From: a virus
Length of the DNA stretch: 64,000 nucleotides
Virus record (IMG/VR): IMGVR_UViG_3300027899_001695
Coordinates: 36,208-100,207 of that record
Direction: 5' to 3' (one strand)
Below the pieces are notes generated by a model. That model was not told the origin of the DNA and searched no databases. It worked only from the letters and a program-made list of their open reading frames with translations. This document shows, in pieces, positions 24,002 to 48,097 of this stretch. Position 1 is the first letter of the stretch, and the number at the start of each line of letters is the position of its first letter. The position numbers and the translations under genes are program-made.

Positions 24002-24066
24002 GTCCACAGAGAGAAAAAATGCGAAGAAAAAGACAAAAAGCAATTAAAAATGTGGAGAAAAAGAAA

Positions 24067-26651: not shown

Positions 26652-27006
26652 ATGTCTTAAAATGGTAGATATAACAGGAGAGGTTAAAGCTACTGATAGA
26701 GAGTTTCACTATATCTTAGATGGTATGGTGGTAGAAAATAAACATGTGATTAAACATATGTCTAAAGATATCATAGCTAAACCTGTCTTTCAGTTGTTGC
26801 ATGATTGGCTTATTTGTGATAAAATGGATTATATCATGAATAGGCAACATATCATGACAATAGCATCAGGATATTTAAGCAGATATAAAGATATATTTGC
26901 TGTTGATTTATATCCTTTAACCGCAAAAATAAAAATAGAAGAACCAGTACTAATTAAGGAGAAAAAACGTGGAAAATTCAAAAAAGCTATGCCCAAACTG
27001 CAATAG
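26623..27006 (+). CDS. Hypothetical protein (GTG start)
   Basis: 127 residues. GTG 26623 with AAGGAG nine bases upstream. Hydrophilic, with no motif recognised. The 3' end overlaps the next gene by 38 bases. Confidence 0.5.
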   Translation: MENLQVILSECLKMVDITGEVKATDREFHYILDGMVVENKHVIKHMSKDIIAKPVFQLLHDWLICDKMDYIMNRQHIMTIASGYLSRYKDIFAVDLYPLTAKIKIEEPVLIKEKKRGKFKKAMPKLQ

Positions 27007-27319
27007 AGAACTCGCTCCCGCAGGAGTAAACAGTGCAAATGAGTTAGCCTATCAATGTGGGCATTGTCTCTTGACTGGTGGTACTCTTGCAGAAATGGCA
27101 AGAATAGCAATAGAGAAAAAGAAGCGAGTAGAAGCTACCGCTTCCTTATTCAAATGCAAGATGTGTAATGAGAGTGTGCCATCTACCAAAATAAATCTTG
27201 CTGATACATTTCCAACTGGAATGTTAGAACTTATACATGTTTGTGATGATTGTATGCCACTTTTGGCTATATCGGAAGCAAAACGTAGGGAGAAAATAAA
27301 TGACACAAGAAGAGCGTAA
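26969..27319 (+). CDS. Double zinc-ribbon protein
   Basis: 116 residues starting at GTG 26969 (TAAGGAG upstream). Two Cys4 units: CPNC...CGHC and CKMC...CDDC. This is the duplicated form of the zinc-ribbon theme in the region. Function unknown; DNA, RNA or protein binding is possible. Confidence 0.6.
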   Translation: MENSKKLCPNCNRELAPAGVNSANELAYQCGHCLLTGGTLAEMARIAIEKKKRVEATASLFKCKMCNESVPSTKINLADTFPTGMLELIHVCDDCMPLLAISEAKRREKINDTRRA

Positions 27320-27692
27320 AGAGTTTGATGAACTTATATGTGGTTCAACCTGTTTTTCAAGACCTTGTTGTATAAGACGTACTGCCGCACATCAATTAGT
27401 ATATTCTGATGGCATATACCATTGTTCTATGCACTCATATTGTTCACGAGTAACGCCTGTTCGTGGTAAGATTGCTAAATGGGTAGGTCGGTATGAGGGC
27501 AAGAATGATGCTTTTAAGATTAACTTAATAAATCGTAAACTCAAAGCCTTAAAAACTGAGATTAAGGCAAGCACAATGAAACTGATTACACAAAATGGTA
27601 AAACATGGGTGGAAGTAAATGGTATGGTGGTATCGCCATCACGCTTTTCTTCGCAATGGTGGAAATTCAAGTTTGAGCGAGAAGAGAGGTAG
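27300..27692 (+). CDS. Cys-rich small protein
   Basis: 130 residues. The first 55 residues hold seven Cys and two His (CGSTCFSRPCC, then CSMHSYC); the C-terminal part is basic and beta-like. Last gene before the second GTAGCTTC promoter, whose first bases overlap its stop codon. Confidence 0.55.
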   Translation: MTQEERKEFDELICGSTCFSRPCCIRRTAAHQLVYSDGIYHCSMHSYCSRVTPVRGKIAKWVGRYEGKNDAFKINLINRKLKALKTEIKASTMKLITQNGKTWVEVNGMVVSPSRFSSQWWKFKFEREER

Positions 27693-27717
27693 CTTCAAAA
27701 CCCCTGTGTGCTATACT
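27689..27717 (+). promoter_or_regulatory. GTAGCTTC promoter, copy 2
   Basis: GTAGCTTC at 27689 and TATACT at 27712, again 23 bases apart. Overlaps the stop codon of the preceding gene. Confidence 0.75.
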
Positions 27718-27721
27718 AAAG

Positions 27722-27743
27722 AACAGGTGGAAAACCACCTGTT
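27722..27743 (+). other. Perfect hairpin at the predicted 5' end of the transcript
   Basis: AACAGGTGG-AAAA-CCACCTGTT, a 9-bp perfect stem starting 5 bases after the -10. No T run follows, so it is a 5' leader hairpin (stability or regulatory) rather than a terminator. Confidence 0.7.
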
Positions 27744-27766
27744 ACTGATAGTAGGAGAGAAAAGAA

Positions 27767-27847
27767 ATGTTTTTATTTATCACAATAAGTTTAATTTTGG
27801 TACTGACTATGATGGTTATGTGGGCTGTATATCACATTGTGGAGTAA
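27767..27847 (+). CDS. 26-residue membrane microprotein
   Basis: ATG 27767 with TAGGAGAG upstream. Almost the whole product is one hydrophobic helix (FLFITISLILVLTMMVMW). First gene after the hairpin leader. Confidence 0.55.
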   Translation: MFLFITISLILVLTMMVMWAVYHIVE

Positions 27848-27874
27848 TACATGATGACTTATAGGAGTTATACA

Positions 27875-28072
27875 ATGAATTTATCTAAACAACACTTTAA
27901 TGAACTATGCCAATTAGCAGACTGTATTGATAAATGTGAATATAATAAAAGTAGAAACTGTGTCGCTTGGATTTTAATAGACCCATTCAAGCGTAAATTA
28001 CTTGAAGTAAAATATACAAATGCGGAGAAAAGAATGAAATGGAAAAAGCAAAACCAAATATTGGAAATATAG
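27875..28072 (+). CDS. Zinc microprotein with DPFKR tail
   Basis: 65 residues from ATG 27875 (TAGGAG upstream), chosen over an ATG 24 bases earlier without a site. Five Cys (LCQLADCIDKCEY, NC), then ILIDPFKRKLLEVKYTNAEK. Paralogue of 25573 and 28968. The tail overlaps a dispersed GCGG element. Confidence 0.6.
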   Translation: MNLSKQHFNELCQLADCIDKCEYNKSRNCVAWILIDPFKRKLLEVKYTNAEKRMKWKKQNQILEI

Positions 28073-28332
28073 AAATTGAACAGGTTGCTAAAATGCTTAA
28101 TATGCAACCAAAGATTAAAACAACTAAACGATGTATTATTGAGGCTTTTAGTAGTCTTATAATATGGTTAGAGGAGCCTTGCAAGGAAGAATTGCATTTT
28201 CCTGAAGAAGGTCGTGACCATTATATTCGGTATGTGAAAGGACAATATACACATCGTAAATATTGCCCCATATGTTGGAAAGAATTTAAGGAGAGTATAG
28301 CACATGATGACATTAAAAGATTTCATGGATAA
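28039..28332 (+). CDS. Hypothetical protein with C-terminal Cys pair
   Basis: 97 residues. A helical N-terminus, a His-rich stretch near residues 70-80, and CPIC near the C-terminus. The GCGGAGAAAAG element supplies its ribosome site. Confidence 0.52.
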   Translation: MEKAKPNIGNIEIEQVAKMLNMQPKIKTTKRCIIEAFSSLIIWLEEPCKEELHFPEEGRDHYIRYVKGQYTHRKYCPICWKEFKESIAHDDIKRFHG

Positions 28333-28990
28333 GAGAAAACAGGGCGAACAGCCTACAACTGAGGAAGCACTTGAAATGCCTGTGGCTCAAGCTACTATTA
28401 AACGTATTGAGCGTAAAGAGGATATGGATGAACACCGCAAAGGCGTTCTAACAAGGGCAAAGATACTGGCAAAGTTTGCAGGAATTAAATTTAAGGCAAG
28501 GGAACTGGTAGACGAATGGATACTTGTTACCTATGACCTACCTGCTACTGATGCAGGTAATAAGGCTCGTCAGGATTTTCTTAGACTTGCACCACGAATA
28601 GGTGCAGTCATGCACACGAAATCTGTATACCTTATGCCTAATACGAATGAGTGTCAGACTGCTACTGTTGATTTGGCAAAGATTGGGAATGTCTATATTT
28701 GGACTTCCAAGGCCAATGATGAAGCATCAAAGAAACAGCTAACCGACCTTTATGACGAACGAATAAAAGGCGGAATAAAAGAAATAAAAGAGAGGATGTC
28801 TTCTATTCGTAAGCATATGGCTAAGGAACAGAATGGCATGGCTAATAGGATGGTAGAGAAAACGATTGATATATTCAATAATAGTGTATTCTCTGTTGTT
28901 CAACGTGGCAATGCTGAACTGTATAATCTGCTTGCTACAATGCGTGACGAATTACAGGAGTTACAGCATGAAGTGGAAAGCAAGGTCTAA
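28304..28990 (+). CDS. Cas2/ChrB-N-like ferredoxin-fold protein
   Basis: 228 residues. Residues about 68-125 read WILVTYDLPATDAGNKARQD, then RIGAVMHTKSVYLMP, the strand-helix-strand pattern of ChrB N-terminal, PaaX-C and Cas2-like proteins, followed by a helical tail (ERIKGGIKEIKERM) as in ChrB. In cells these domains are regulators or structural nucleases. Adjacent to the MoxR ATPase gene. No cas1 or CRISPR array is present, so a CRISPR role is not suggested. Confidence 0.5.
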   Translation: MMTLKDFMDKRKQGEQPTTEEALEMPVAQATIKRIERKEDMDEHRKGVLTRAKILAKFAGIKFKARELVDEWILVTYDLPATDAGNKARQDFLRLAPRIGAVMHTKSVYLMPNTNECQTATVDLAKIGNVYIWTSKANDEASKKQLTDLYDERIKGGIKEIKERMSSIRKHMAKEQNGMANRMVEKTIDIFNNSVFSVVQRGNAELYNLLATMRDELQELQHEVESKV

Positions 28991-29159
28991 AGCAGAGCAG
29001 AGAAAGCTATGCTTACTCTCTGAGTGTACTTATTCTGAGTGCTACAATAGAAACACTAAACGTGTGGCTTATTGTAGCATTTGGGATGAAATAGACCCAT
29101 TCAAAAAGTTATTACTTGAAATAAAATATAAAAAACAGGAGAAACAGAAAAATGGCTAA
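28968..29159 (+). CDS. Zinc microprotein with DPFKK tail
   Basis: 63 residues from ATG 28968 with CAGGAG upstream. Cys at LCLLSECTYSEC and YC, then EIDPFKKLLLEIKYKKQEK. Translationally coupled to the Cas2-like gene and to the MoxR gene. Confidence 0.6.
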   Translation: MKWKARSKAEQRKLCLLSECTYSECYNRNTKRVAYCSIWDEIDPFKKLLLEIKYKKQEKQKNG

Positions 29160-30219
29160 AGACACACCGATTACTACATCAATGATTAGGATGCGTCCTG
29201 CAGAAATTGAGGAAGCTATCGTAGGTAATTACAAGAAACGTGTTCCTCGTGCAATTATACTTGGTTCACCTGGGAGTGGAAAGACTTCTGTGCTTTATCA
29301 TATAGCAGACAACATCTTAAAAGTACCACGTTTTACATTTCAGGCTACTCTTTATGACCCTACTGAGGTTAAAGGATTGCCTGTAATGACCGAAGAAATG
29401 CGTGATGGTAAGTTGGTTAAGATTGCAAAATTTCTTCCTTTTGAAGATATGCCGTCTTGCCCTGAGGGACTTCTTATCATTGATGATATAACACATTCCG
29501 CACAACAGACACAAAATGCGTTCATGCGTCTTATTCTTGAGGGAATAGCAGGGGCATGGGATTTGGGCGGTTTGTATCCTGTTGCTACTGGTAATAGGGC
29601 GATGGATAGGGCAGGTGCAAAAGACCTGCAGACTGCTATGGCTAACCGCTTTTGGTTCGTTGAGTTTGAGGACAACTACTCCGATTGGCGGTCATGGGCG
29701 GTACAGAATGACATTCATCCTGCTATCATTGCTTACTTGGGTACTCCGTTTGGTCAAGATTGGCTAAACAAGTTTGATGCAACACATCAGATTAATCCGA
29801 CACAACGTACATGGGAAATGGCTTCACACCATATGAAGTCTATGTCAAGCAACGAAATACTCATGCGTAAATGTATTGCAGGGTGCATTGGTGATGAAGC
29901 TACTGCAAAATTCATGGGATGGATGAAAGTCTATTCACAGCTTCCCGACCTTAAAAAGGTTATGGCAGGAGAAGACATTTACGTTGATAATGTTGACGTA
30001 ATGTATGCTACTGTTTCCGCACTTGTTTCAATGGCAAAAAATGCGGATAAAAGAAAGGTTGCCTTTCAACGTTTAATTGACTATGCTTTGGGTATTCCTG
30101 ATGGATACGTTGAATTGGGTGCTTTGATTGGTAAGGACTTGTTCAAACTTGATATGGCTACGTTTGAGAAACTTAACCTTGATAAGTGGGAGTCACGTTT
30201 CGAAGAGATTGTAATCTAG
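29152..30219 (+). CDS. MoxR-type AAA+ ATPase
   Basis: 355 residues. Walker A GSPGSGKT (residues 39-45), Walker B LLIIDD (107-112), sensor-1 PVATGNR and arginine-finger region AMANRF are all present. MoxR ATPases remodel or activate partner proteins, usually a VWA-domain protein encoded nearby; that partner is the gene at 31078, four small genes downstream. A forward GCGG element is embedded in the 3' part (KNADKRK). Catalytic motifs look intact. Confidence 0.85.
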   Translation: MAKDTPITTSMIRMRPAEIEEAIVGNYKKRVPRAIILGSPGSGKTSVLYHIADNILKVPRFTFQATLYDPTEVKGLPVMTEEMRDGKLVKIAKFLPFEDMPSCPEGLLIIDDITHSAQQTQNAFMRLILEGIAGAWDLGGLYPVATGNRAMDRAGAKDLQTAMANRFWFVEFEDNYSDWRSWAVQNDIHPAIIAYLGTPFGQDWLNKFDATHQINPTQRTWEMASHHMKSMSSNEILMRKCIAGCIGDEATAKFMGWMKVYSQLPDLKKVMAGEDIYVDNVDVMYATVSALVSMAKNADKRKVAFQRLIDYALGIPDGYVELGALIGKDLFKLDMATFEKLNLDKWESRFEEIVI

Positions 30220-30236
30220 TACAAATGTACTATAAT
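30209..30236 (+). promoter_or_regulatory. Candidate promoter, TTGTAA-N16-TATAAT
   Basis: -35 at 30209, -10 at 30231, inside the end of the MoxR gene. A small palindrome GTACAAATGTAC covers the spacer and could be an operator. The next ATG (30250) follows closely. Confidence 0.45.
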
Positions 30237-30249
30237 GCAGGAGAGTAAA

Positions 30250-30495
30250 ATGAACAAAGAATGTAATGTTAGGGAAATATGCCCATTTGATTTGGAGAAA
30301 CTGGCTATCAAACAAGACACATTCCATCAAAAATGTTCCCCTGATGATACATTAAAAAAGGATGGCGACTTTTGTAGTAACGTATCATACTGTTGTGTGA
30401 TATGTTCTACAAAAGGTTGTGATGCACTAAATAAAGAAAGATGGGGCTTCAAAAGAACCTTATTAAGGATGAAATTAAATGCAAAGTCAACTTAA
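30250..30495 (+). CDS. Cys-rich microprotein
   Basis: 81 residues from ATG 30250 (GCAGGAGAG upstream). Nine Cys, including CCVIC, and a tail GFKRTLLRMKLNAK resembling the family tail. Lies between MoxR and its VWA partner. Confidence 0.57.
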   Translation: MNKECNVREICPFDLEKLAIKQDTFHQKCSPDDTLKKDGDFCSNVSYCCVICSTKGCDALNKERWGFKRTLLRMKLNAKST

Positions 30496-30724
30496 TGACT
30501 ACCCAAATGCATTCCAACAATTAAACTTAGCACAAAAACAACGGTTATGTTTATATTGTTCTACACATGGTCTTTGTAAGCCAGCTAAAGATAAAACCCA
30601 ACGAATAGGAAATGGGTGTTATACAGGCTTTGAACAAAGTAAATGGATATGGTGTGGTCAATGGTTGGAGTTAGATTGGTTTAAAGTAGTTTTAATAACG
30701 AGGAGTAAAAATGAAAGTAAGTGA
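30479..30724 (+). CDS. Cys-rich microprotein
   Basis: 81 residues. CLYCSTHGLC and CYTGF... WC, then the tail LDWFKVVLITRSK, a variant of DPFKRxLL. Overlaps both neighbouring genes. Confidence 0.55.
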   Translation: MQSQLNDYPNAFQQLNLAQKQRLCLYCSTHGLCKPAKDKTQRIGNGCYTGFEQSKWIWCGQWLELDWFKVVLITRSKNESK

Positions 30725-30902
30725 TATACTAAATCGTCTCAAAGATACAAGAGGATTTATCAATGAACGTAAAATCTATGAAGAAGACGGTGAGTGTGAT
30801 GAAGACGAGTTAAGCAACATGGAGTTTATGCTTGAGGGCGTTGAGAGTGCTATTGAGTTCTTTGAGGAGTGGTTAGCAGAAAATGAAGACTTTGAGGAGT
30901 AA
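30711..30902 (+). CDS. Small acidic helical protein
   Basis: 63 residues, about one third Asp/Glu. GAGGAG before ATG 30711. Could be a DNA mimic or an acidic partner; no family recognised. Confidence 0.5.
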   Translation: MKVSDILNRLKDTRGFINERKIYEEDGECDEDELSNMEFMLEGVESAIEFFEEWLAENEDFEE

Positions 30903-30906
30903 GTAA

Positions 30907-31077
30907 ATGAATGAGTTAGAACTGTTCTTTAGTGACTTAAATGAACAAGCAAAAAAGAAAGTAATGGAGTTTTATGGAATGGAAAGTGCAGGTGATGGTA
31001 ATTGGGAAATACTGCCTTTGTGTATTCTATGCAACGAAGATACAGAATATGTAAAAAGAGAAACGCAGGAGAGTTAA
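30907..31077 (+). CDS. Small acidic protein with CILC pair
   Basis: 56 residues. Helical acidic N-terminus and a late LCILC. Its stop codon abuts the start of the VWA gene, so it is coupled to it. Confidence 0.5.
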   Translation: MNELELFFSDLNEQAKKKVMEFYGMESAGDGNWEILPLCILCNEDTEYVKRETQES

Positions 31078-32184
31078 ATGGACGTAAAAGTAATTAGGGC
31101 AAAGGTTCAGTTAATGCTGAACAGACCATTCTATGGTTCACTTGTTGCAAGATTGCAATTAAAACCTTGGGATGGTTATACATTTGCTACTGATGGAGAG
31201 TTTCTTTATGTTCCTGCAAAGCATGACTACGATAAAGATACTCTTGAGTCAGTAGTAGCACATGAAACATGGCATTGTGCGTTGCTTCATCCATTTCGTA
31301 TTGGAAAACGTAACCATATGCTGTGGAACATTGCTTGTGATTATGCAATCAATGACCTGCTTCAACGTGATGGCTTCAAAATTCATAGTACGTGGCTGTA
31401 CGATAAGAAATACGCAGGTATGAGTGCAGAGAAGATTTATGAGAAGCTACCAAAAGATATGCAAATGCCAAAAGAATTGATAGACTTGATTGAGCGTCTT
31501 GATAAGGCAAGTAAGGGCAAAGGTAATAAGGGTAAGAACAAGTTTCCATCCAAATCTAATCAAGATTTAGAGCAAGAATGGAAAGAGAACATGGCTTCTT
31601 CTATTGAACGCAATCGTGGGCATCTTCCTGCAGGATTTGAGGAACAACTGACAGACTATATGTTCCCACAAATTCCTTGGCAAACTCTTCTATTCCGCTT
31701 TTTACAAGTCACTAAAGGTATGCAAGACTTTAGAGCATATCCGTTCCATAGGGCTCATATATGGCGTGGTATATTCTTGCCATCGTTGCAAGGTGACTTC
31801 ATTGAAATCAACGTGGCATGGGATACATCAGGAAGTATGAGCAACGAGGAACTATCAAAGGGACTTGCGGAAACAAGGGGAATGTGTGCAAACTTCGGTG
31901 GTTATCTCATTCATCTTTTTATGTGTGATGCGGATTGTCATTCGGTTACAGATATAACAGATGATTCAGAAGTACCAACAGTAGTAACAGGTCGTGGTGG
32001 TACATCATTTGTTCCTGTATTCAAGAAGATACAAGAATTGCAGTTAGATGATTTGCCACTTGTTTACTTTACTGACTTGGATGGTGAGTTTCCAAAAGAA
32101 GCAAAGGATGATACGCTATGGGTTACTTCCGAAAGGAGCAAGCATACTAAAATTCCATTCGGAGAACTTATCGTACTCAATTAA
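31078..32184 (+). CDS. DUF2201-type metallopeptidase-like/VWA protein (MoxR partner)
   Basis: 368 residues. The N-terminal domain has an HExxH-like zinc motif (HETWHCALLH, residues 62-71) and a Trp-Asn-Ala-x-Asp helix typical of the putative metallopeptidase domain (DUF2201_N). The C-terminal VWA-like domain carries the MIDAS DTSGSMS (249-255) and GRGGTSF. Such proteins are partners of MoxR ATPases. GCAGGAGAG precedes ATG. It probably acts with the ATPase at 29152; the target is unknown. Confidence 0.78.
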   Translation: MDVKVIRAKVQLMLNRPFYGSLVARLQLKPWDGYTFATDGEFLYVPAKHDYDKDTLESVVAHETWHCALLHPFRIGKRNHMLWNIACDYAINDLLQRDGFKIHSTWLYDKKYAGMSAEKIYEKLPKDMQMPKELIDLIERLDKASKGKGNKGKNKFPSKSNQDLEQEWKENMASSIERNRGHLPAGFEEQLTDYMFPQIPWQTLLFRFLQVTKGMQDFRAYPFHRAHIWRGIFLPSLQGDFIEINVAWDTSGSMSNEELSKGLAETRGMCANFGGYLIHLFMCDADCHSVTDITDDSEVPTVVTGRGGTSFVPVFKKIQELQLDDLPLVYFTDLDGEFPKEAKDDTLWVTSERSKHTKIPFGELIVLN

Positions 32185-32201
32185 ACAAGAAAGGAGAGCA
32201 A

Positions 32202-32549
32202 GTGAGAATTACTGCAAGATATTCCGAAGCAAATACACATATGTATTTGTATCATGTGCCAAAATATGAATTGGCAAAGCTACTTGAAACAAAACAGTTT
32301 AGTGTTAAAGTAAGCGTGATGCGTAAGCCTACTGCTAAACAGAGCCAATACTATGATGAAAAAGAGTCTGTTGGTTATCATAAGGTTACGCTATCGCAAC
32401 AAGTAGCTACAGGCAGGTTAGATATAGTCTTGACGTCACATAGACTTACTGAGAAAGACATACTTGCCTTGAAGTTACAACCAATTCAACAGGCCGTTGA
32501 GAAAGAACGGCATCAAGCAATTACAGCCAAATTGAAAAAGGCTACCTAA
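32202..32549 (+). CDS. Hypothetical protein after the VWA gene (GTG start)
   Basis: 115 residues. GTG 32202 with AAGGAGAG upstream. Mixed alpha/beta, ending in a basic helix; no family recognised. It is the last gene before a terminator, so it closes the MoxR-VWA operon. Confidence 0.55.
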   Translation: MRITARYSEANTHMYLYHVPKYELAKLLETKQFSVKVSVMRKPTAKQSQYYDEKESVGYHKVTLSQQVATGRLDIVLTSHRLTEKDILALKLQPIQQAVEKERHQAITAKLKKAT

Positions 32550-32553
32550 AATT

Positions 32554-32597
32554 GGGCGGGTCATTCGTTTAATTACGTTTGACTCGCCCTTTTTTTG
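32554..32597 (+). terminator. Intrinsic terminator of the MoxR-VWA operon
   Basis: GGGCGGGTCA pairs with TGACTCGCCC (one G-T wobble), followed by seven T. A new GTAGCTTC promoter begins six bases later. Confidence 0.85.
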
Positions 32598-32602
32598 TTT
32601 CC

Positions 32603-32631
32603 GTAGCTTCAAAACCCTGCTGTGGTATACT
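32603..32631 (+). promoter_or_regulatory. GTAGCTTC promoter, copy 3, with inverted repeat
   Basis: GTAGCTTC at 32603, TATACT at 32626 (23-base phase). ACCCTG at 32614 and CAGGGT at 32634 form a perfect inverted repeat around the -10, a possible operator. Confidence 0.75.
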
Positions 32632-32666
32632 GTCAGGGTAGAGAAAAAACAGATAGGAGAGATAAA

Positions 32667-32846
32667 ATGCCAAATATAAATGGGTACTTAGTATCAACAA
32701 ACTGTCTTGATGCACCTGTTCAAATAGAAGAAATAAGAGATACAGATGAAGACTTGATAATCTTATTTGACAAACCTTTTACTTTTGCACTTTGGTTTAA
32801 TAAGAAAGAAAAAGAAATCTTAATTGATATTCTTAATGGAGCATAA
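32667..32846 (+). CDS. Small acidic protein
   Basis: 59 residues from ATG 32667 (TAGGAGAG upstream); the longer open frame would start inside the promoter. Contains a beta-rich FDKPFTFALWF segment. No family recognised. Confidence 0.55.
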   Translation: MPNINGYLVSTNCLDAPVQIEEIRDTDEDLIILFDKPFTFALWFNKKEKEILIDILNGA

Positions 32847-33211
32847 TGATGGCAATTAGAGAAGTAAAACTATTTCAAATACCGCCAATAATAGCAGTTA
32901 TGCCTGTTATTCCAGTAACTACAACACCATGTAACAAGTATAGGTATAACGAATACGAACCTGAAATGACAAGATTTCATCCTGATGATATGACAGGAGA
33001 AGATATACCTTGGTACTTACAACCTGAAATGCAAGGCGTAGCAAAAGAGATATATGATGCTACTTCAAGTGATAGAACAAGTGCTTTTGCTTGTAAGGCT
33101 TGTGGTGTTATACCATCAGTAAGGGATAGACGCTATGTAGTTAAGACAGGCAATATTGAGTTAGCTTGTAGTGCCGAATGTGTGGCTACAATAAAAAAGC
33201 GGAAAGGATAA
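32846..33211 (+). CDS. Zinc-binding protein with Pro-rich N-terminus
   Basis: 121 residues. ATG overlaps the previous stop. A hydrophobic Pro/Ile/Val N-terminus, an acidic middle, and a C-terminal treble-clef-like CKAC...CSAEC. The last codons (KKRKG) lie in a forward GCGG element. Confidence 0.57.
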   Translation: MMAIREVKLFQIPPIIAVMPVIPVTTTPCNKYRYNEYEPEMTRFHPDDMTGEDIPWYLQPEMQGVAKEIYDATSSDRTSAFACKACGVIPSVRDRRYVVKTGNIELACSAECVATIKKRKG

Positions 33212-33217
33212 AATAAA

Positions 33218-33340
33218 ATGAATGATTGGTTATTTAACTTTTGGTGGCAACAAAAAGTAATTTCAATGTGGTTATTGCTACCAGTTATACTATTTGGTAT
33301 AATAATGCTAATAAAAATAGTGTGTAAAAAGGAGAAATAA
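33218..33340 (+). CDS. 40-residue membrane microprotein
   Basis: ATG 33218. An aromatic N-terminus (WLFNFWW) and one hydrophobic helix of about 19 residues, then a basic KKEK tail whose codons contain the ribosome site of the next gene. Confidence 0.55.
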   Translation: MNDWLFNFWWQQKVISMWLLLPVILFGIIMLIKIVCKKEK

Positions 33341-33514
33341 ATGAAAACGTATGAAATGCCAGTAACATTAACAATCAAGTTTGAAGCAGAGAATGAGAAA
33401 CAAGCTATGGAATTGCTTACATTCATGTTCATCAATCCTAAATTTGAAGAAAAGTTTGAAGCAAGGCTATTAGATGTTGAAGAAGATTGGGGCGAGTTGC
33501 AGTTACTCAAATGA
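33341..33514 (+). CDS. Small acidic alpha/beta protein
   Basis: 57 residues with AAAGGAGAAATA before ATG. Reads MKTYEMPVTLTIKFEAENEK, the start of a small beta-alpha-beta protein. The stop overlaps the next ATG (ATGA). Confidence 0.5.
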   Translation: MKTYEMPVTLTIKFEAENEKQAMELLTFMFINPKFEEKFEARLLDVEEDWGELQLLK

Positions 33515-33828
33515 AAGAAATAACAACTATTGTATGTAAACTTGAACAGACTGAAAGCAAAGAGTATCACGCTATTGAAGCAGGTGAATGTAAACGTGGA
33601 CAAGGACTTATATATGACCACATGACAGGATATAGGTGCTTGAGAGAGAATGGCACGTTAGGACATTGTATTAGAGTAACATCTGATGGCAGTATGTTTA
33701 CGAACTTCAATGTGCGTGATGGCTTTAAGGTTAGCTTAGTAATCAATGACCTTAATCAATTAAAGACAAGCACAATAAAAAATGCGGATAAAAGAAAAGC
33801 ATTTATATGGGATGGCACAGTAGGGTAG
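33511..33828 (+). CDS. Hypothetical protein
   Basis: 105 residues from ATG 33511, coupled to the previous stop. Four Cys spread through the chain; ends in KNADKRKAFIWDGT, where the KNADKRK codons are a forward GCGG element identical in frame to the one in the MoxR gene. Its last codon overlaps the next promoter. Confidence 0.52.
   Translation: MKEITTIVCKLEQTESKEYHAIEAGECKRGQGLIYDHMTGYRCLRENGTLGHCIRVTSDGSMFTNFNVRDGFKVSLVINDLNQLKTSTIKNADKRKAFIWDGTVG
33774..33799 (+). repeat. Dispersed GCGG element, forward copy
   Basis: AATAAAAAATGCGGATAAAA followed by GAAAAG, inside a coding region with no start codon after it, so its conservation there is not explained by ribosome binding. Confidence 0.75.
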
Positions 33829-33853
33829 CTTCAAAACCCTGCTGTGCTATACT
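33825..33853 (+). promoter_or_regulatory. GTAGCTTC promoter, copy 4
   Basis: GTAGCTTC at 33825, TATACT at 33848 (23-base phase). Drives 33894 to 35611. Confidence 0.75.
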
Positions 33854-33893
33854 GTGAGAGTAGCAAAAATAAACAGATAAAGGAGAGTTAAAG

Positions 33894-34649
33894 ATGCCTA
33901 CAAATCTATTAAACAATGACCCAAGACTAAGCTATCCATTATTCAGGGATGAAAACGGAAACATTCCAGTCATTAAGAGTCTAAATCGTTTGGGAAATAT
34001 CGTATATCAAATACCAAATGATAATGCTCAAATAGTCTATCGGATATTGGTATATGAAGCATCAAATCAAAATGAAGATGTATATAACAATCTGGTGGTA
34101 GCCAATCCTAATAGCTATAGACTACGATTGAATAATCAGGTAATGGTAGAACGTGTTAGTACGATTGATTATACTTATCCGTATAATAGTAATGGTGAAA
34201 GACCACGTAGATTAACAGGTTTGAAATTCAAGGTAGACGTACCTACACGTGGTTCATGGGGAAGATGGCAAAGTTATTCAGCACGAACAGCATCAGTAGT
34301 GCGTGGTACAATTACTTTTAATGCAATGCAAAATGTATTAAGGGAAGTTAATCAGTTACTTGAACACCATATAGAACATGAGAATGAACGCCAACGCCTT
34401 CATCGTATAGAACGTGAACGAATAGACCGTGAAGCTAATCAAGCAAGTGTCTTTATGAATAGTGTACTTGAACACTATCCACTTGAACCATCTGATGATT
34501 ATGGTTGGCGTAACAACTTTACGCAAGTACGTTTGTCTATTGTAATAGATAAGTATCAAGTAGCAAAAGTATTTGATGCTATTCATAATGTTCGGCATAT
34601 GCAGACCAATCCGTTGGATGCAGAATACCTACTGAAAAAGGATTACTAA
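33894..34649 (+). CDS. Hypothetical protein upstream of the amidotransferase
   Basis: 251 residues, AAGGAGAG before ATG 33894. A beta-rich N-terminal half and a long Arg/Glu/His helix (HHIEHENERQRLHRIERE). No family recognised. Same operon as the glutamine amidotransferase, so it may belong to that system. Confidence 0.55.
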   Translation: MPTNLLNNDPRLSYPLFRDENGNIPVIKSLNRLGNIVYQIPNDNAQIVYRILVYEASNQNEDVYNNLVVANPNSYRLRLNNQVMVERVSTIDYTYPYNSNGERPRRLTGLKFKVDVPTRGSWGRWQSYSARTASVVRGTITFNAMQNVLREVNQLLEHHIEHENERQRLHRIERERIDREANQASVFMNSVLEHYPLEPSDDYGWRNNFTQVRLSIVIDKYQVAKVFDAIHNVRHMQTNPLDAEYLLKKDY

Positions 34650-34650
34650 T

Positions 34651-34905
34651 ATGAGTAGCGGATTACGGAGAGTATACAATATCCAATCAAATACAGACCC
34701 ATTATGGTATTCAATTCAACAGAAATGGTATCTACCACGACATCATAGGATATTTAAGAAACTTTATGAATGTCCTAAATGTGGCAAACCAACTTTAACA
34801 AATAAACGTTGTTCAGACAGATGTAAAAATAAAAAAGGAGAGTTAATCAATGTGCAGACTATCAGCAATCATTCAACTCGGAGAGCAGAAGGCAACACCG
34901 CTTGA
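34651..34905 (+). CDS. Zinc-ribbon microprotein
   Basis: 84 residues. CPKCGKPTLTNKRCSDRC is a compact Cys4 site; a basic aromatic N-terminus precedes it. The 3' 56 bases overlap the amidotransferase gene. Confidence 0.55.
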   Translation: MSSGLRRVYNIQSNTDPLWYSIQQKWYLPRHHRIFKKLYECPKCGKPTLTNKRCSDRCKNKKGELINVQTISNHSTRRAEGNTA

Positions 34906-35611
34906 GATTAAACAACTACTTATATCAATGGAAGATGGTGGCAAGGATGCGACAGGTATCGCTTTTATAACACCTGATGATATAATTTATGCCAAACAAA
35001 AGGGAAAGGCAAGTGATGTTATATCAAGCACCTTTGAAAGTGATATAGAGCAATATAGTGAGAAAGCTAATGCAATTATATTGCATACAAGGGCATCTAC
35101 TCATGGTTCACCTAATAACAATGACAACAACCATCCTATCATTGGTGAGAAGTACATACTGGTACATAATGGAATTGTTCATACAGATAGAAAATATCCT
35201 GCTAAGGGTGAAACTGATAGTGAGCAAATGCTTCGGTCTATTGAGTTTAACGGAATTGATAAAGGATTGTCTAAGTGTTCAGGATGGGTAGCAATGATAT
35301 TTGCTGATATACAGAACCTTAAAGACTTTTATTGGTTTTCAAATCCAACAGCCAGTATGTCAGCAGGACATGATAAGGAACGTGGTATATGGTTTATAGC
35401 ATCAACCTATTCCATTATTACTCAAAGTGTCATACCAAATACTATCGAATACAGTATAGCGAAGAATTCGCTATATAAATGTGACCTATCAACAGGTAAA
35501 ATGAGCATTGAGAGTAAGCCTGTGGTAAAGCAAAATTACTATGCTAATTCATCATTTGATTGGGATGGTTTTTATGCTAAAGGAAAATATAATAAATCAT
35601 ATGCTTACTAA
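34850..35611 (+). CDS. Class-II glutamine amidotransferase (Ntn hydrolase)
   Basis: 253 residues. Cys2 after the initiator Met is the expected nucleophile; the chain has KDATGIAFI, LHTRASTHGSPNNNDNNHPI, LVHNGIVH and ETDSEQML, the hallmark segments of class-II glutaminases that release ammonia from glutamine. AAAGGAGAG precedes ATG. It lacks a synthetase domain and lies immediately upstream of an amidoligase, so it probably supplies ammonia to or works in sequence with that enzyme. Iyer and colleagues described this pairing in phiEco32-like phages. Confidence 0.8.
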   Translation: MCRLSAIIQLGEQKATPLEIKQLLISMEDGGKDATGIAFITPDDIIYAKQKGKASDVISSTFESDIEQYSEKANAIILHTRASTHGSPNNNDNNHPIIGEKYILVHNGIVHTDRKYPAKGETDSEQMLRSIEFNGIDKGLSKCSGWVAMIFADIQNLKDFYWFSNPTASMSAGHDKERGIWFIASTYSIITQSVIPNTIEYSIAKNSLYKCDLSTGKMSIESKPVVKQNYYANSSFDWDGFYAKGKYNKSYAY

Positions 35612-35612
35612 G

Positions 35613-35641
35613 GTAGCTTCAAAACCCATTTGTGGTATGAT
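35613..35641 (+). promoter_or_regulatory. GTAGCTTC promoter, copy 5
   Basis: GTAGCTTC at 35613, -10 TATGAT at 35636 (23-base phase, weakest -10 of the set). Drives the amidoligase. Confidence 0.68.
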
Positions 35642-35681
35642 GATAGCATAGCAAAAATAAACAGCAGGAGAGTAAAACAGT

Positions 35682-36875
35682 ATGGCAAAGAAACTAAATC
35701 TTACTTATGGTGCAGACCCTGAATTCTGCATATATGAAAGGATAACCCAACGTACTGCCGATGCATGTCATGTTATAGCAGGTGCAAGCCTATCAAGTCC
35801 CATCGGACATGATGGATGCTCTTGTACAGGTGAATTAAGGTTGCCACCTACTCATAGTGCCGAAAGTGCATTTAAGGCATTGAAAAATCTACTTAAAGTA
35901 GAATTGCCGAAACGCCTTAACCTAATAGAATATGACATTACAGCAGGTTCAGGTACTGAACACCAATGTACTGGTGGTCATATTCATATAGGTGGTTTGG
36001 GAATGAACCCAACGCATCAAATACTTAATAATATTTGGCGTTTCATATCTACACCACTTAATAGCATTTCAAGGACTGCGAATAGGCATAGGGCTTATGG
36101 GAATAAAGACGACTATCATCGGCAAGAGAAGTATGGCGGATATGAATTGCGTAGTCCGCTTTCATGGATTGTAACGCCACGCATTTCAAAGGGCGTATTC
36201 GTTATAACTTCTATTCTTGCTAATAATGCTACTACTGATTTCCCTGATTGGGATGCTCTTATTGCAGTAGCAAATAAGCAGGAACAGATTGTCATATCAT
36301 CCTATCGCAAAGAGATTGCATGGTTTCTTTCAAGTGGTACTAAACTTGAAGATATAAGCGTTATTAAGGCATGGCGTAGGCGTAATATAAGTAAGTGTAA
36401 GACTACATCACTTACTACTGTATTTCACATCATTTCATTCTCACGTGATATGAATATGAATGAGATATTCTTTACGACCAAACGCAATCCTGTTTGTCGT
36501 ATTCCTTTGCGTGTAGTCGGTGCAAGGTCAGGCCGCACATCTGAAAAAGCGGTTTTAATTCCCAATGATTGGACTTTTGTTCTACCTGATATACTTTGGG
36601 GCGTAAGGATAATCAAATGGGGACATCAGGCTGTAGGGCTTTCAAGGGCGTTGCGTGAAGATGCCGTTGAAGCGAAAAGGTTCTTCATTCAATTCATAAA
36701 GATATTGAATAGGCAAATAAAAAAACGGCAGGAAGAAGATAAACTTCCTGTTGTTCCTGTTAATCCAATAGCAACAGCATCGGTTAGAATGGAAGTAGTA
36801 GAACGTGATGATTATGACCATTGTACTGATTGTGATGATGATAGTGATTGTGATAACTGCCAGTACAGTAATTAA
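35682..36875 (+). CDS. phiEco32-type amidoligase (COOH-NH2 ligase type 2)
   Basis: 397 residues. N-terminal YGADPEFCIYE, then IGHDGCSCTGELRLPP, GGHIHIGG and YELRSPLSW match the conserved glutamine-synthetase-like core of the phage COOH-NH2 ligase family, which joins a carboxylate to an amine using ATP. An Asp/Cys-rich C-terminus (CTDCDDDSDCDNCQY) may bind metal. Iyer et al. proposed that these enzymes modify cell wall peptides or protein side chains. The adjacent class-II glutaminase supports a function in amide-bond chemistry; the substrate is unknown. Confidence 0.75.
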   Translation: MAKKLNLTYGADPEFCIYERITQRTADACHVIAGASLSSPIGHDGCSCTGELRLPPTHSAESAFKALKNLLKVELPKRLNLIEYDITAGSGTEHQCTGGHIHIGGLGMNPTHQILNNIWRFISTPLNSISRTANRHRAYGNKDDYHRQEKYGGYELRSPLSWIVTPRISKGVFVITSILANNATTDFPDWDALIAVANKQEQIVISSYRKEIAWFLSSGTKLEDISVIKAWRRRNISKCKTTSLTTVFHIISFSRDMNMNEIFFTTKRNPVCRIPLRVVGARSGRTSEKAVLIPNDWTFVLPDILWGVRIIKWGHQAVGLSRALREDAVEAKRFFIQFIKILNRQIKKRQEEDKLPVVPVNPIATASVRMEVVERDDYDHCTDCDDDSDCDNCQYSN

Positions 36876-36889
36876 GTAGGAGAATAAAT

Positions 36890-37294
36890 ATGCCGAAAGT
36901 AAAAGCAAGTACAGTAATTGATAACATCGTAAAACAGTATGCATCTATTGATGCACAAGTAAAGTTACTTGAAGTAACAAAAGCAACACTACGCAATAAG
37001 GTAATTGAATGTATGAAAACACATGATACTACTGAGTGGAGTGTAGATGGAGTTACAGTTAAATTAGTCAAAGCGGAAACTGTTAAATTCAATGATGAAG
37101 CTATGGCAGAGTTATTGGGTAGGCGTTTCAATGACATATCCGATAGGACAACCAATAGGGAAAAATTCAAATCTGCTATGGTATTAAACAGGTTTGATGG
37201 AATTGATTTTTCCAACGCTATCAACAAGGTGATTACAGATAGGCTGTTAGTTGATGGCAAAAGCACAGCAAAACTTTCATTCGTGATTGAGTAG
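36890..37294 (+). CDS. Hypothetical protein with coiled N-terminus
   Basis: 134 residues, TAGGAGAATAA before ATG. A helical coiled N-terminus and an alpha/beta C-terminal half. No family recognised. Last gene of the amidoligase operon; it may be a partner. Confidence 0.55.
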   Translation: MPKVKASTVIDNIVKQYASIDAQVKLLEVTKATLRNKVIECMKTHDTTEWSVDGVTVKLVKAETVKFNDEAMAELLGRRFNDISDRTTNREKFKSAMVLNRFDGIDFSNAINKVITDRLLVDGKSTAKLSFVIE

Positions 37295-37299
37295 GGTAG

Positions 37300-37328
37300 G
37301 TAGCTTCAAAACCCTGCTGTGCTATACT
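37300..37328 (+). promoter_or_regulatory. GTAGCTTC promoter, copy 6, upstream of a noncoding stretch
   Basis: GTAGCTTC at 37300, TATACT at 37323 (23-base phase), with ACCCT/AGGGT inverted repeat around the -10. The next convincing gene starts 370 bases later. Confidence 0.72.
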
Positions 37329-37334
37329 GTTAGG

Positions 37335-37655
37335 GTAGGGCAAACAGCATCCATAACTACGGCAGGGATAATGAGTATCTAATCCAACAGCGTACAGACC
37401 GAGTGCAGTATACGGCTTTAATCTTAATTAGTATACTGATTAAGACAAGCTATTCTGCGGGTGGTGCAGTATCGTCTTAACTGATGAACATACCTTATTA
37501 TCGTTGTTTAATTGCAAGGTTAGCAGGTGGTGTTAATCAAGTGAGTGAACAGCCTGTGCAACAGTTATTTAGAAGCGTGTTTCGCTATCATGGTGGCGAT
37601 GCCCATTTGAAGTAAGCCTATACAGATGTCGGTTACTTCAAATGGGCATTTTTTA
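37335..37655 (+). ncRNA. Candidate structured noncoding RNA between promoter and terminator
   Basis: About 320 bases run from a GTAGCTTC promoter to a 17-bp terminator hairpin without a convincing gene. Local hairpins include TCTTAAT/ATTAAGA and AGCG/CGCT. A 43-codon frame (37484-37615, MNIPYYRCLIARLAGGV...) is open but has no ribosome site, and its stop coincides with the end of the terminator's 5' arm. Either a regulatory RNA or an unusual short ORF. Confidence 0.4.
37599..37655 (+). terminator. 17-bp perfect terminator hairpin
   Basis: ATGCCCATTTGAAGTAA at 37599 pairs perfectly with 37633-37649, followed by a run of T. The stem is longer than typical, so the transcript end would be very stable. 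Confidence 0.88.
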
Positions 37656-37701
37656 TTATCTATTTATCAAATTTGCGTATTATAATTAACAGGAGATATA
37701 A

Positions 37702-38046
37702 ATGAAAGCAAAAGTCAATTTCGGTGATATTCTAATAGAGATTTCCAATGGATGCAAAAGACAGTATGATATAGAGTATTTGGGTAAGACGAATATAGGT
37801 TTCTTCCTTGAATATGGCGATTATCCTGAAATACTTACAGGTGATGATGGATATAGGTATTATGCCAGTATCAATATACTATGGTTCAAGCTATTCGTAT
37901 CATGGACATGGGGTTCATACGATATAGAAACTGAACAAGCCGTAGCAGTAGCAGATAAAATGGATACTGCTAATACATATAGCGTAGCAGATACTAAAAT
38001 ATATGATACTAAGATAGCAGTACCATTGTTTCCTGTTAGCAATTAG
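37702..38046 (+). CDS. Hypothetical beta-rich protein
   Basis: 114 residues, CAGGAGATATAA before ATG. Beta-strand pattern in the first 75 residues, Thr/Asp/Ala-rich tail. No family recognised. Confidence 0.55.
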   Translation: MKAKVNFGDILIEISNGCKRQYDIEYLGKTNIGFFLEYGDYPEILTGDDGYRYYASINILWFKLFVSWTWGSYDIETEQAVAVADKMDTANTYSVADTKIYDTKIAVPLFPVSN

Positions 38047-38109
38047 CATCCTGCAAATAATTGAAAGGTAGGTTAAGATAATCAAATTATTTGATAGGAG
38101 AAACAAGAA

Positions 38110-38211
38110 TTGGCTAATCCCACACATCAACGTAAGATTACATTCAAAGCACCTAAGGTAAGTACGAAAATGCCTAAGGTGAAGTTACCTAAGATAAAAA
38201 AGCGGAGATAA
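38110..38211 (+). CDS. 33-residue basic peptide (TTG start)
   Basis: TTG 38110 with AGGAGAAACAAGAA upstream. Lys/Pro repeats (FKAPKV, KMPKVKLPKIKKRR) like a nucleic-acid-binding tail. Its last codons contain a forward GCGG element. Confidence 0.45.
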   Translation: MANPTHQRKITFKAPKVSTKMPKVKLPKIKKRR

Positions 38212-38216
38212 AGAAA

Positions 38217-38507
38217 ATGGATAGTTATATATGCCCACAATGTAACCAAATATATAAGGGATGGTCAGGGCATACTAATTGTTTTGTATGTGGTACTAAA
38301 TTAGTACCATATACAGATATAAAGGACAAAGATAAAGAGTTACCTATAACAAGTGAGTTTCCAATAGAGAATTTGCCTTATACGATTAAGGCAACACGTT
38401 TCGGTGATAGTACCATAATTACTTTTACTGATACGATACTGCATGAGCATGAAACATTTGCTATTACAGTATATGAAGACCATATATACATAAGTACAGC
38501 AGGGTAG
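38217..38507 (+). CDS. Zinc-ribbon small protein
   Basis: 96 residues. CPQC and CFVCGTKL at the N-terminus form a classic zinc ribbon; the rest is a small beta-rich domain. The start is preceded by the GCGG element, which provides the ribosome site. Confidence 0.6.
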   Translation: MDSYICPQCNQIYKGWSGHTNCFVCGTKLVPYTDIKDKDKELPITSEFPIENLPYTIKATRFGDSTIITFTDTILHEHETFAITVYEDHIYISTAG

Positions 38508-38532
38508 CTTCGGAACCCTGCTGTGGTATACT
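38504..38532 (+). promoter_or_regulatory. GTAGCTTC promoter, copy 7
   Basis: GTAGCTTCGGAACCC variant at 38504 (GG replaces AA), TATACT at 38527, 23-base phase kept. It overlaps the stop of the preceding gene. Confidence 0.7.
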
Positions 38533-38548
38533 GTATAGGTAACAGAGA

Positions 38549-38576
38549 AAATAAAAAATGCGGATAAAAGAAAATG
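38549..38576 (+). repeat. Dispersed GCGG element, forward copy
   Basis: AATAAAAAATGCGGATAAAA followed by GAAAATG, which provides the start context of the microprotein at 38574. Confidence 0.75.
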
Positions 38577-38687
38577 TATAGTAACGTAGAATGTATAGGT
38601 ATATTTGTACTGGCTATGACATTCCCATTATGGATTATACCTTACTTGATATATAAGTTTTATCATAGGCAGATAGTAGGCAGGTAG
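38574..38687 (+). CDS. 37-residue membrane microprotein
   Basis: ATG 38574 directly after a GCGG element. One helix (IGIFVLAMTFPLWIIPYLIY), then a basic tail. The stop codon TAG lies inside the next GTAGCTTC promoter. Confidence 0.52.
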   Translation: MYSNVECIGIFVLAMTFPLWIIPYLIYKFYHRQIVGR

Positions 38688-38712
38688 CTTCAAAACCCTA
38701 ATGTGGTATACT
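38684..38712 (+). promoter_or_regulatory. GTAGCTTC promoter, copy 8 (leaderless gene follows)
   Basis: GTAGCTTC at 38684, TATACT at 38707 (23-base phase). The ATG at 38718 starts only five bases after the -10, at the expected transcription start. Confidence 0.72.
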
Positions 38713-38717
38713 AAGCT

Positions 38718-38909
38718 ATGATGAAAAAACAGATGAAAGGTAAAACAACCAGAGCTAAGTCTAACATGGATATGGTTCGTATAGCTAAGTGTGCAAACTG
38801 TGGTAAAAGCTATGAACAATCGGATTACTCTATACTATGTGATGCGATAACAAAGTATAAACCAGTATGCTCATTAGCTTGTAACAAGGCAATAGGTCAG
38901 GTACGATAA
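38718..38909 (+). CDS. Zinc-ribbon microprotein, probably leaderless
   Basis: 63 residues. A basic N-terminus, then CANCGKSYEQ and CSLAC, a treble-clef-like Cys4 site. There is no room for a ribosome site between promoter and ATG, so translation is likely leaderless. Confidence 0.57.
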   Translation: MMKKQMKGKTTRAKSNMDMVRIAKCANCGKSYEQSDYSILCDAITKYKPVCSLACNKAIGQVR

Positions 38910-38967
38910 CCCATAGTAAAATAAAAAAAAGCGGATAAAAGAAAATAAATTAAATAGGAGAGTTAAA

Positions 38968-39183
38968 TTGGATATAATTAGTTTTGGAGAAGTGTTTACA
39001 GTACAGAACATACCAGTACATACTATGAAGCTAATCATTAAAGCATTAAATTATAGTATTGTAAATGATATATATAATCCTGATGATGTAGAGATAGTGG
39101 TTGATTTGAGTAATGCTTTATATTATAAGATAGTAAGACAGCAGGTAGCTTCAAAACCCCCCTGTGATATACTGTTAGGGTAG
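38968..39183 (+). CDS. Hypothetical protein whose 3' end runs through a promoter (TTG start)
   Basis: 71 residues. TTG 38968 with TAGGAGAG upstream. The last 13 residues (ASKPPCDILLG among them) are encoded by the GTAGCTTC promoter element at 39145, so the promoter seems to have been inserted into, or to have extended, this gene. Confidence 0.48.
   Translation: MDIISFGEVFTVQNIPVHTMKLIIKALNYSIVNDIYNPDDVEIVVDLSNALYYKIVRQQVASKPPCDILLG
39145..39173 (+). promoter_or_regulatory. GTAGCTTC promoter, copy 9, inside a CDS
   Basis: GTAGCTTC at 39145, TATACT at 39168 (23-base phase), within the 3' codons of the gene at 38968. Confidence 0.72.
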
Positions 39184-39218
39184 AGAGAAAATAAACATAG
39201 CAGGAGAGTTAAAACAAT

Positions 39219-39407
39219 ATGATACCATGTAACAAGTGCGGGAATACAGTCTATAGCATGAAAGGCAAGTGCCTATCATGCGGTAATCAGCAATTCAAGA
39301 GCAAGGAAACGGTCATACAGAAAGTAAATACAGTCGTTGATAACATGGTGGCCGACAAGGTAGAACGTATTTTAATGGCTCTGGTTAAGGTAAACGTATG
39401 CGACTAA
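39219..39407 (+). CDS. Zinc-ribbon microprotein (CLxCGNxQF type)
   Basis: 62 residues. CNKCGNTVYSMKGKCLSCGN forms a zinc ribbon, then QQFKSK and a helix. It is a paralogue of the microprotein at 46514, which shares the Cys spacing and the GN-Q-F-x-SK segment. Confidence 0.6.
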   Translation: MIPCNKCGNTVYSMKGKCLSCGNQQFKSKETVIQKVNTVVDNMVADKVERILMALVKVNVCD

Positions 39408-39499
39408 ATCAGGTAGCAGGAAATGTAATCCTGTGCATAGCATTTATATCCTTGCCGTTATTGATACTTGCGGTGACTGTTGCCTATATGATTATTTAA
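39398..39499 (+). CDS. 33-residue membrane microprotein
   Basis: ATG 39398 overlaps the end of the preceding gene. A single hydrophobic helix fills most of the chain (LCIAFISLPLLILAVTVAY). Coupled translation is likely. Confidence 0.5.
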   Translation: MRLNQVAGNVILCIAFISLPLLILAVTVAYMII

Positions 39500-39540
39500 C
39501 AACGCTTGATTAAAGCTATGTCAATAGCAATTACAAGAAC

Positions 39541-39706
39541 AACGATTATAAGAACCGATGCGAACATGGACTTGCGGACATCGGATATGTATACTACCTA
39601 ATCCCAATCACGCATGACCGAATAACGGCATAGTGCGTATGTGATGCCTATATGGAGAACATCGCATAAGCGTACAGCCGTTGTTCTCATGCGTGGTTTT
39701 TTATTT
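39541..39706 (+). ncRNA. Candidate structured RNA or 3' UTR closing in a terminator
   Basis: Hairpin CCGATG/CATCGG lies at 39555-39583. A closing helix CACGCATG (39609) / CATGCGTG (39688) encloses a GAGAACA/TGTTCTC hairpin and ends in a run of six T plus ATTT. No gene is present. It could be an independent RNA or the structured tail of the upstream mRNA. Confidence 0.4.
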
Positions 39707-39865
39707 GCCCATTGGGATGGTCACATGGGCTCATCGTATGCGTGAACGTACATTAGATACCCCTAAGTAGCGAAGCTACTACGGGGCATTTGAATGTCCC
39801 CTAATGATATCTTCACATGGTGTTATTTGAATAGGCTTTCATATGAATTGGTATTATCCTATAGT
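39707..39865 (+). other. Intergenic region with alternative hairpins
   Basis: A GCCCAT/ATGGGC hairpin is followed by a CCCC...GGGG arm with an AGTAG/CTACT inner stem (39759-39786) and an overlapping GGGGCAT/ATGTCCC hairpin (39783-39801). The last two share the GGGG run, so they are mutually exclusive. No gene seen. Confidence 0.45.
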
Positions 39866-39894
39866 GTAGCTTCAAAACCCCTGTATGGTATACT
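39866..39894 (+). promoter_or_regulatory. GTAGCTTC promoter, copy 10
   Basis: GTAGCTTC at 39866, TATACT at 39889 (23-base phase). Drives the Lys-rich protein at 39955. Confidence 0.72.
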
Positions 39895-47787: not shown

Positions 47788-47788
47788 A

Positions 47789-47863: not shown

Positions 47864-47864
47864 T

Positions 47865-47942: not shown

Positions 47943-47943
47943 T

Positions 47944-48020: not shown

Positions 48021-48021
48021 T

Positions 48022-48096: not shown

Positions 48097-48097
48097 T

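What the first reader, a model, noticed from the sequence alone, without database searches (positions are those of the whole stretch)
34850..36875. Glutamine amidotransferase and phiEco32-type amidoligase pair
A stand-alone class-II glutaminase (Cys2, NHP and HNG motifs) directly precedes a COOH-NH2 ligase (YGADPEF, GELR, GGHIHIGG). Iyer et al. predicted that phage amidoligases modify cell-wall peptides or proteins, but substrates remain unknown. Each gene has its own GTAGCTTC promoter; unknown genes at 33894 and 36890 flank them and may be partners.
Basis: partly seen in the sequence, partly recalled or inferred. Interest (0 to 1): 0.65.

Follow-up and report, generated by a model that had tools for sequence, protein, structure and literature searches.

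The report
Phage glutaminase–amide ligase gene pair
An uncultured 100 kb phage carries two neighbouring genes that very probably work together, one releasing ammonia from glutamine and one using ATP to join a carboxyl group to a nitrogen; the enzyme kinds are known from many phages, but this is a stripped-down two-gene form from a separate branch, and nobody knows what it modifies.

Summary
ORF 34850-35611 is a class-II (Ntn) glutaminase with all catalytic residues, and its model matches GlmS, PurF and EgtC. ORF 35682-36875 is a PF14395 COOH-NH2 ligase (65 bits) with every family motif intact; its model, confident only over about 220 N-terminal residues, matches YbdK, glutathione-synthesis ligases and glutamine synthetase. 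Two corrections. First, the glutaminase has no GTAGCTTC promoter of its own: it is third in an operon starting at 33825, and the ligase has one at 35613. Second, the ligase is not of the phiEco32 type: it falls in a separate supported clade (97/97) of mostly longer proteins. Many phages carry a larger module (PF14395 + Amidoligase_2 + glutaminase + ATP-grasp + GGCT). This record shows only the pair. Its nearest ligase kin also lie beside a glutaminase (L039, L040, L034), and L040 shows only the pair as well. No support was found for the flanking ORFs 33894 and 36890 as partners. Most likely mechanism: a two-subunit glutamine-dependent amidotransferase (Gln to NH3 to acyl-phosphate to amide); the substrate is unknown. 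Chief rival: a gamma-glutamyl ligase with an EgtC-like hydrolase. A new variant of a known kind, moderate interest.

The parts
33825..33853 (+). promoter-like element GTAGCT-17 nt-TATACT heading the operon 33894 / 34651 / GAT
   Evidence: same architecture at 10 sites, all + strand, 23.9-39.9 kb
33894..34649 (+). ORF of unknown function (251 aa), first gene of the operon that contains the GAT; partner role not supported
   Evidence: no family; no relative in other amidoligase loci
34651..34905 (+). small Cys-rich ORF (84 aa, CPKC...C...C) overlapping the GAT start by 56 bases
   Evidence: no significant family
34850..35611 (+). stand-alone class-II glutamine amidotransferase (glutaminase), 253 aa, Cys2 nucleophile
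   Evidence: PF13522 1.1e-8; conserved catalytic residues; AlphaFold2 pTM 0.78, Foldseek top hit 1xff GlmS glutaminase domain 1e-12
35613..35641 (+). promoter-like element GTAGCT-17 nt-TATGAT in front of the ligase
35682..36875 (+). COOH-NH2 ligase (PF14395), 397 aa; catalytic core about residues 5-220, long C-terminal extension of low model confidence
   Evidence: PF14395 7.8e-18; motifs; Foldseek YbdK/gamma-GCS/GS; clade
36890..37294 (+). 134 aa ORF 14 bases behind the ligase, probably co-transcribed; weak resemblance to phrog_6244 and the C-terminal part of a RecE-like family; no sign of an amidoligase role
   Evidence: no relatives in amidoligase loci
37300..37328 (+). next promoter-like element, closing the ligase/36890 unit

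Best explanation
The two genes encode the two halves of a glutamine-dependent amide-forming enzyme. Met1 of the GAT is removed, exposing a catalytic N-terminal Cys that hydrolyses glutamine to glutamate and ammonia. The PF14395 protein, a glutamine-synthetase-fold ligase, uses Mg-ATP to phosphorylate a carboxylate of its substrate, and ammonia from the GAT attacks this acyl-phosphate to give a primary amide. Functionally this would resemble the two-subunit MurT-GatD amidotransferase of Gram-positive cell-wall precursors (known from the literature, not tested here), built from different folds. Shown: gene identity, intact active sites, predicted folds, recurrent adjacency, absence of detectable additional module genes in the record. 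Inferred: physical or functional coupling, ammonia as the nitrogen donor, amide product. Unknown: the substrate; a cell-wall peptide, a host protein or a small metabolite are all open.
For: Both families over curated cut-offs. All class-II GAT catalytic positions present and conserved. All ligase motifs present; 10 invariant and 8 near-invariant columns across 14 phage ligases. Predicted folds match GlmS/PurF/EgtC and YbdK/gamma-glutamylcysteine ligase/glutamine synthetase/Dop. The ligase's nearest kin sit directly beside a short stand-alone GAT: L039 twice, L040, L034. An independent amidoligase family, PF12224, is likewise paired directly with such a GAT in L004, L005, L006 and Arthrobacter phage Ottawa. 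No Amidoligase_2, ATP-grasp or GGCT gene was detected in the window's 100 kb record, which favours simple amidation over multi-step peptide or gamma-glutamyl chemistry.
Against: No direct evidence that the GAT feeds the ligase. Some PF14395 loci show no GAT in the stretch held (L031, L033, L035, L036, L037, L038), so the ligase may act without one. In larger modules GGCT and ATP-grasp point to gamma-glutamyl or peptide chemistry. The GAT fold also matches EgtC, which hydrolyses a gamma-glutamyl amide rather than donating ammonia. The ligase model is poor beyond residue 220.
Confidence: 0.5

Rival explanations
1. Gamma-glutamyl tagging and untagging: the ligase makes a gamma-glutamyl (or similar) amide of an amine or peptide, as EgtA/GCS2 enzymes do, and the GAT-like protein is an EgtC-like hydrolase that removes or trims it.
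For: The closest solved fold to the ligase is YbdK, with bifunctional glutathione synthetases next; EgtC is among the listed structural matches of the GAT. Larger phage modules add a gamma-glutamyl cyclotransferase and sometimes a class-I GATase.
Against: No GGCT detected in this record. The GAT's best structural matches are ammonia-donating enzymes, GlmS and PurF.
Confidence: 0.25
2. The ligase condenses a carboxylate with an amine of another substrate (peptide or polyamine) on its own, and the GAT serves a different step or merely sits nearby.
For: In this record the two genes lie behind different promoter-like elements; several PF14395 loci show no GAT in the stretch held.
Against: Direct GAT-ligase adjacency recurs in unrelated phages and with two ligase families.
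Confidence: 0.15
3. Remnant of the larger phage amidoligase module, with little or no activity.
For: The other module genes are not detected in the record; the ligase sits on a long branch.
Against: Both frames intact, all active-site motifs kept at about 18-33% identity to relatives, promoter-like element in front of the ligase. The two-gene form recurs in L040 within the stretch held.
Confidence: 0.07

Closest known systems
Phage amidoligase module of phiEco32, Privateer, LUZ24-like (DL54), Bjorn and crAss-like phages (cr108_1, phi14:2)
   Same: PF14395 ligase together with a class-II GAT in one gene cluster
   Different: Those loci also show most of Amidoligase_2, ATP-grasp, GGCT and a ~200 aa ORF; their ligases are ~265 aa and form another clade; their GATs are longer (about 490-680 aa)
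IMG/VR contigs 3300020045_010174 (L039/L030), 3300014502_000001 (L040), 3300037827_000187 (L034)
   Same: Long PF14395 ligase of the same clade directly beside a short stand-alone GAT
   Different: Only about 20-30% identical; L039 and L034 add an ATP-grasp gene and have the ligase more than once
PF12224 Amidoligase_2 + GAT pairs (L004-L006; Arthrobacter phage Ottawa gp65-66)
   Same: Two adjacent genes, ligase and short GAT
   Different: A different ligase family; order ligase then GAT; Ottawa has a weak GGCT-like ORF upstream
YbdK / EgtA (GCS2) and EgtC
   Same: Predicted folds of the ligase (YbdK) and the GAT (EgtC)
   Different: About 11-14% identity; substrates known for EgtA and EgtC, unknown here

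Membership tests
Pfam PF14395 COOH-NH2_lig | profile score above the curated cut-off of 25 bits | tested here: met
   65.1 bits, profile 2-180 of 254
Pfam PF14395 COOH-NH2_lig | conserved motifs (GADPE, ELR/EF, GGHxHxG, YG, E[YL]R) | tested here: met
   alignments A3 and A5, hmmsearch
Pfam PF14395 COOH-NH2_lig | glutamine-synthetase-like fold | tested here: met
   Foldseek against PDB: YbdK 4.3e-6, glutamine synthetases, Dop; model confident only for about residues 10-220
phiEco32-type branch of PF14395 | groups with phiEco32 gp86 and kin in a tree | tested here: not met
   separate clade at 97/97; long branch noted
Full phage amidoligase module (PF14395 + Amidoligase_2 + ATP-grasp + GGCT + GAT) | presence of Amidoligase_2, ATP-grasp and GGCT genes | tested here: not met
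   none found by Pfam searches or by HMMs built from the phage modules (PF12224 positive control). The record may be incomplete.
Class-II glutamine amidotransferase | N-terminal Cys, oxyanion NG, Arg, His and Asp positions | tested here: met
   C2, R81, T84, H95, N107, G108, D123
Class-II glutamine amidotransferase | Ntn-hydrolase fold | tested here: met
   1xff 1e-12, TM 0.69
Class-II glutamine amidotransferase | glutaminase activity and ammonia transfer | not testable with these tools
   needs enzymology

The most novel reading that the evidence does not exclude
The pair is a minimal phage-encoded amidotransferase, a functional counterpart of MurT-GatD or AsnB/LtsA built from a PF14395 ligase and a class-II GAT, that amidates carboxylates of host cell-wall precursors during infection.
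Probability: 0.12. Interest if true: 0.75.

Novelty: new variant of a known kind. Interest (0 to 1): 0.38.

Why it matters
Phage amidoligases occur across unrelated phages (at least 316 records of a 50,697-record phage collection match one PF14395 ligase), yet the papers found still give only predictions for their role. A two-gene form with no detectable additional module genes is a simpler starting point for finding the reaction and the substrate than the larger modules, and comparing the two shows which genes may be essential to the core chemistry.

Tried and rejected
Single-sequence scans of viral contigs and genome contigs with the window ligase found no relatives; tblastn of the ligase against 50,697 phage records found none at 1e-5. 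A first alignment (A1) misaligned the GGHIHIG motif and gave no hits; an exact GGHIHIGG DNA pattern then recovered nine loci and the nearest kin. A second genome-contig scan with A3 found none, so no cellular relatives were recovered. The flanking ORFs as partners: rejected for lack of recurrence. phiEco32-branch membership: rejected. DNA hypermodification as the role: considered, but no adjacent gene pointed that way; not tested further. Paper search for the promoter word gave nothing relevant. Records related by RNR or by the VWA protein show no PF14395 hit, so the pair could not be followed in close kin; the closest (L048, 83% RNR identity) is only 6 kb. Whole-record GAT searches by the genome search miss some true GATs (L039, L040), so absences there were not used. 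One script failed and printed stale hits; it was redone.

Full report
What is there. The window is bases 36208-100207 of a 100,207-base virus record. ORF 34850-35611 (253 aa) and ORF 35682-36875 (397 aa) lie on the + strand 70 bases apart, each behind a Shine-Dalgarno-like purine run. The first is a class-II glutamine amidotransferase: PF13522 1.1e-8 and PF13230 over cut-off, phrog_14519 5.8e-13, best solved relative by sequence the GlmS glutaminase domain. The second is PF14395, 'phiEco32-like COOH.NH2 ligase-type 2', 65 bits against a cut-off of 25.

Active sites and folds. The GAT keeps Cys2, HTR(81), TH(84-85)G, H95-P, N107-G108 and D123; most of these positions are invariant among five to eight relatives. 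By established knowledge of GlmS they correspond to Cys1, Arg73, Thr76/His77, His86, Asn98/Gly99 and Asp123. Its AlphaFold2 model (pTM 0.78) matches the glutaminase domain of GlmS at 1e-12, then PurF and EgtC. The ligase keeps every PF14395 motif: GADPEF, D44/E51 (GELR), GGHIHIGG, YG139-140 and YELRS. Its model is good only for about residues 10-220 (mean pLDDT 60.5), but Foldseek still places it with YbdK (4.3e-6), bifunctional glutathione synthetases, glutamine synthetase and Dop, and with a phage COOH.NH2 ligase in BFVD.

Promoters. GTAGCTTCAAAACCC is a real repeat. With a shared downstream part it reads roughly GTAGCTTCAAAACCC-N3-TGTGSTATACT, that is GTAGCT-17 nt-TATACT with an extended -10, at ten places, all on the + strand and all between 23.9 and 39.9 kb; none lies in the 36 kb of the record outside the window. 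This looks like a phage promoter for one gene module (inference). Elements at 33825, 35613 and 37300 define two units: [33894, 34651, GAT] and [ligase, 36890]. The claim that each gene has its own element is therefore wrong for the GAT.

Comparison with known modules. Eleven named-phage loci (Bjorn, Privateer, phiEco32, cr108_1, phi14:2, Lbo-JY46, RIO-1, T4S1, ctwe8250, DL54, ctOsX528) all have PF14395 with a class-II GAT within about 5 kb. HMMs built from them show Amidoligase_2, ATP-grasp, GGCT and a ~200 aa ORF in most. Four of the eleven loci (Bjorn, Privateer, ctOsX528, T4S1) come from records that the GAT search had also hit, so linkage is best judged on the others, reached through the ligase or, for phiEco32, by accession. 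In the window's record the same HMMs find only the GAT and the ligase, in agreement with the Pfam searches; PF12224 was recovered in positive controls.

Nearest relatives. The ligase had no detectable relative in single-sequence scans. A DNA pattern for GGHIHIGG and the alignment A3 recovered L030/L039, L034 and L040. In L039 the order is ATP-grasp-like ORF, GAT, PF14395, GAT, PF14395; in L040 PF14395 then GAT, with nothing else of the module in 12.5 kb; in L034 PF14395, PF14395, GAT, ATP-grasp, PF14395. A tree places the window ligase with L034, L035, L039, L040 and L041 (97/97), apart from the phiEco32 branch. The window branch is long (2.33), so its exact place inside that clade is unsure. 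A second amidoligase family, PF12224, pairs directly with a short GAT in L004-L006 and in Arthrobacter phage Ottawa. Recurrence of ligase + short GAT with two different ligase families argues that the GAT serves the ligase (inference). Against universality, L031, L033 and L035-L038 show no GAT in the stretch held, although some of those stretches are short and two of the records have a GATase_6 match elsewhere.

Mechanism. Most likely: Gln to Glu + NH3 at the GAT; carboxylate + ATP to acyl phosphate at the ligase; NH3 attack gives an amide. The lack of detectable ATP-grasp and GGCT makes a single amidation step more likely than peptide elongation or gamma-glutamyl cycling, but the record may be incomplete and this is inference. 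The chief rival is the EgtA/EgtC logic, in which the ligase makes a gamma-glutamyl amide and the Ntn protein hydrolyses one; sequence alone did not separate these. The substrate is unknown. Papers repeat the 2009 proposal of cell-wall modification and superinfection control without an experimental test that I could find (PMC10580990, PMC11318856); one paper proposes a nitrogen-metabolism role for such genes in a planctomycete phage, again by inference from growth effects of the whole phage (PMC10945688). Iyer et al. 2009 itself was not held, so its content is taken from citing papers.

Flanking genes. ORF 33894 has no family and no relative in any amidoligase locus; ORF 36890 resembles small phage proteins and the C-terminal part of a RecE-like family weakly; neither recurs with other pairs. 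They are not supported as partners.

Verdict. The finding is real and mostly read correctly. It is a new variant (two-gene form, separate ligase clade) of a widespread, functionally uncharacterised phage enzyme kind.

Noticed in passing
window 36817-36872: The ligase ends in an acidic Cys-rich tail (HCTDCDDDSDCDNCQYSN, Cx2Cx5Cx2C) not seen in its relatives; possible metal-binding tail.
   Followed up: no
window 23973-39894 (ten sites): Promoter-like repeat GTAGCTTCAAAACCC-N3-TGTGSTATACT, ten copies, all + strand and confined to one 16 kb gene module; the -35 region looks non-canonical, suggesting a phage-encoded activator or sigma factor.
   Followed up: partly
L003:13639-17238: Terminase-like ORF (1200 aa) carrying an intein splicing domain and LAGLIDADG.
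   Followed up: no
window 15-2204: Portal-like ORF whose middle matches an endonuclease family (phrog_4645), possibly an intein or homing insertion.
   Followed up: no
window 21114-22568: 484 aa ORF matching pieces of HNH endonucleases, helicase, head-protease and methyltransferase families in different segments; looks like a second intein/HNH mosaic.
   Followed up: no
window 47699-50560: Cluster of 25 tRNA genes covering most amino acids.
   Followed up: no
window 29152-32184: MoxR-like AAA ATPase and DUF2201 metallopeptidase/VWA genes close together; the same two families lie close together in contigs L012-L019.
   Followed up: partly
L003:10302-11909: Ribonucleotide reductase whose best named-phage matches include B12-dependent class II enzymes, top Moorella phage MTATph1 at 41%.
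   Followed up: partly
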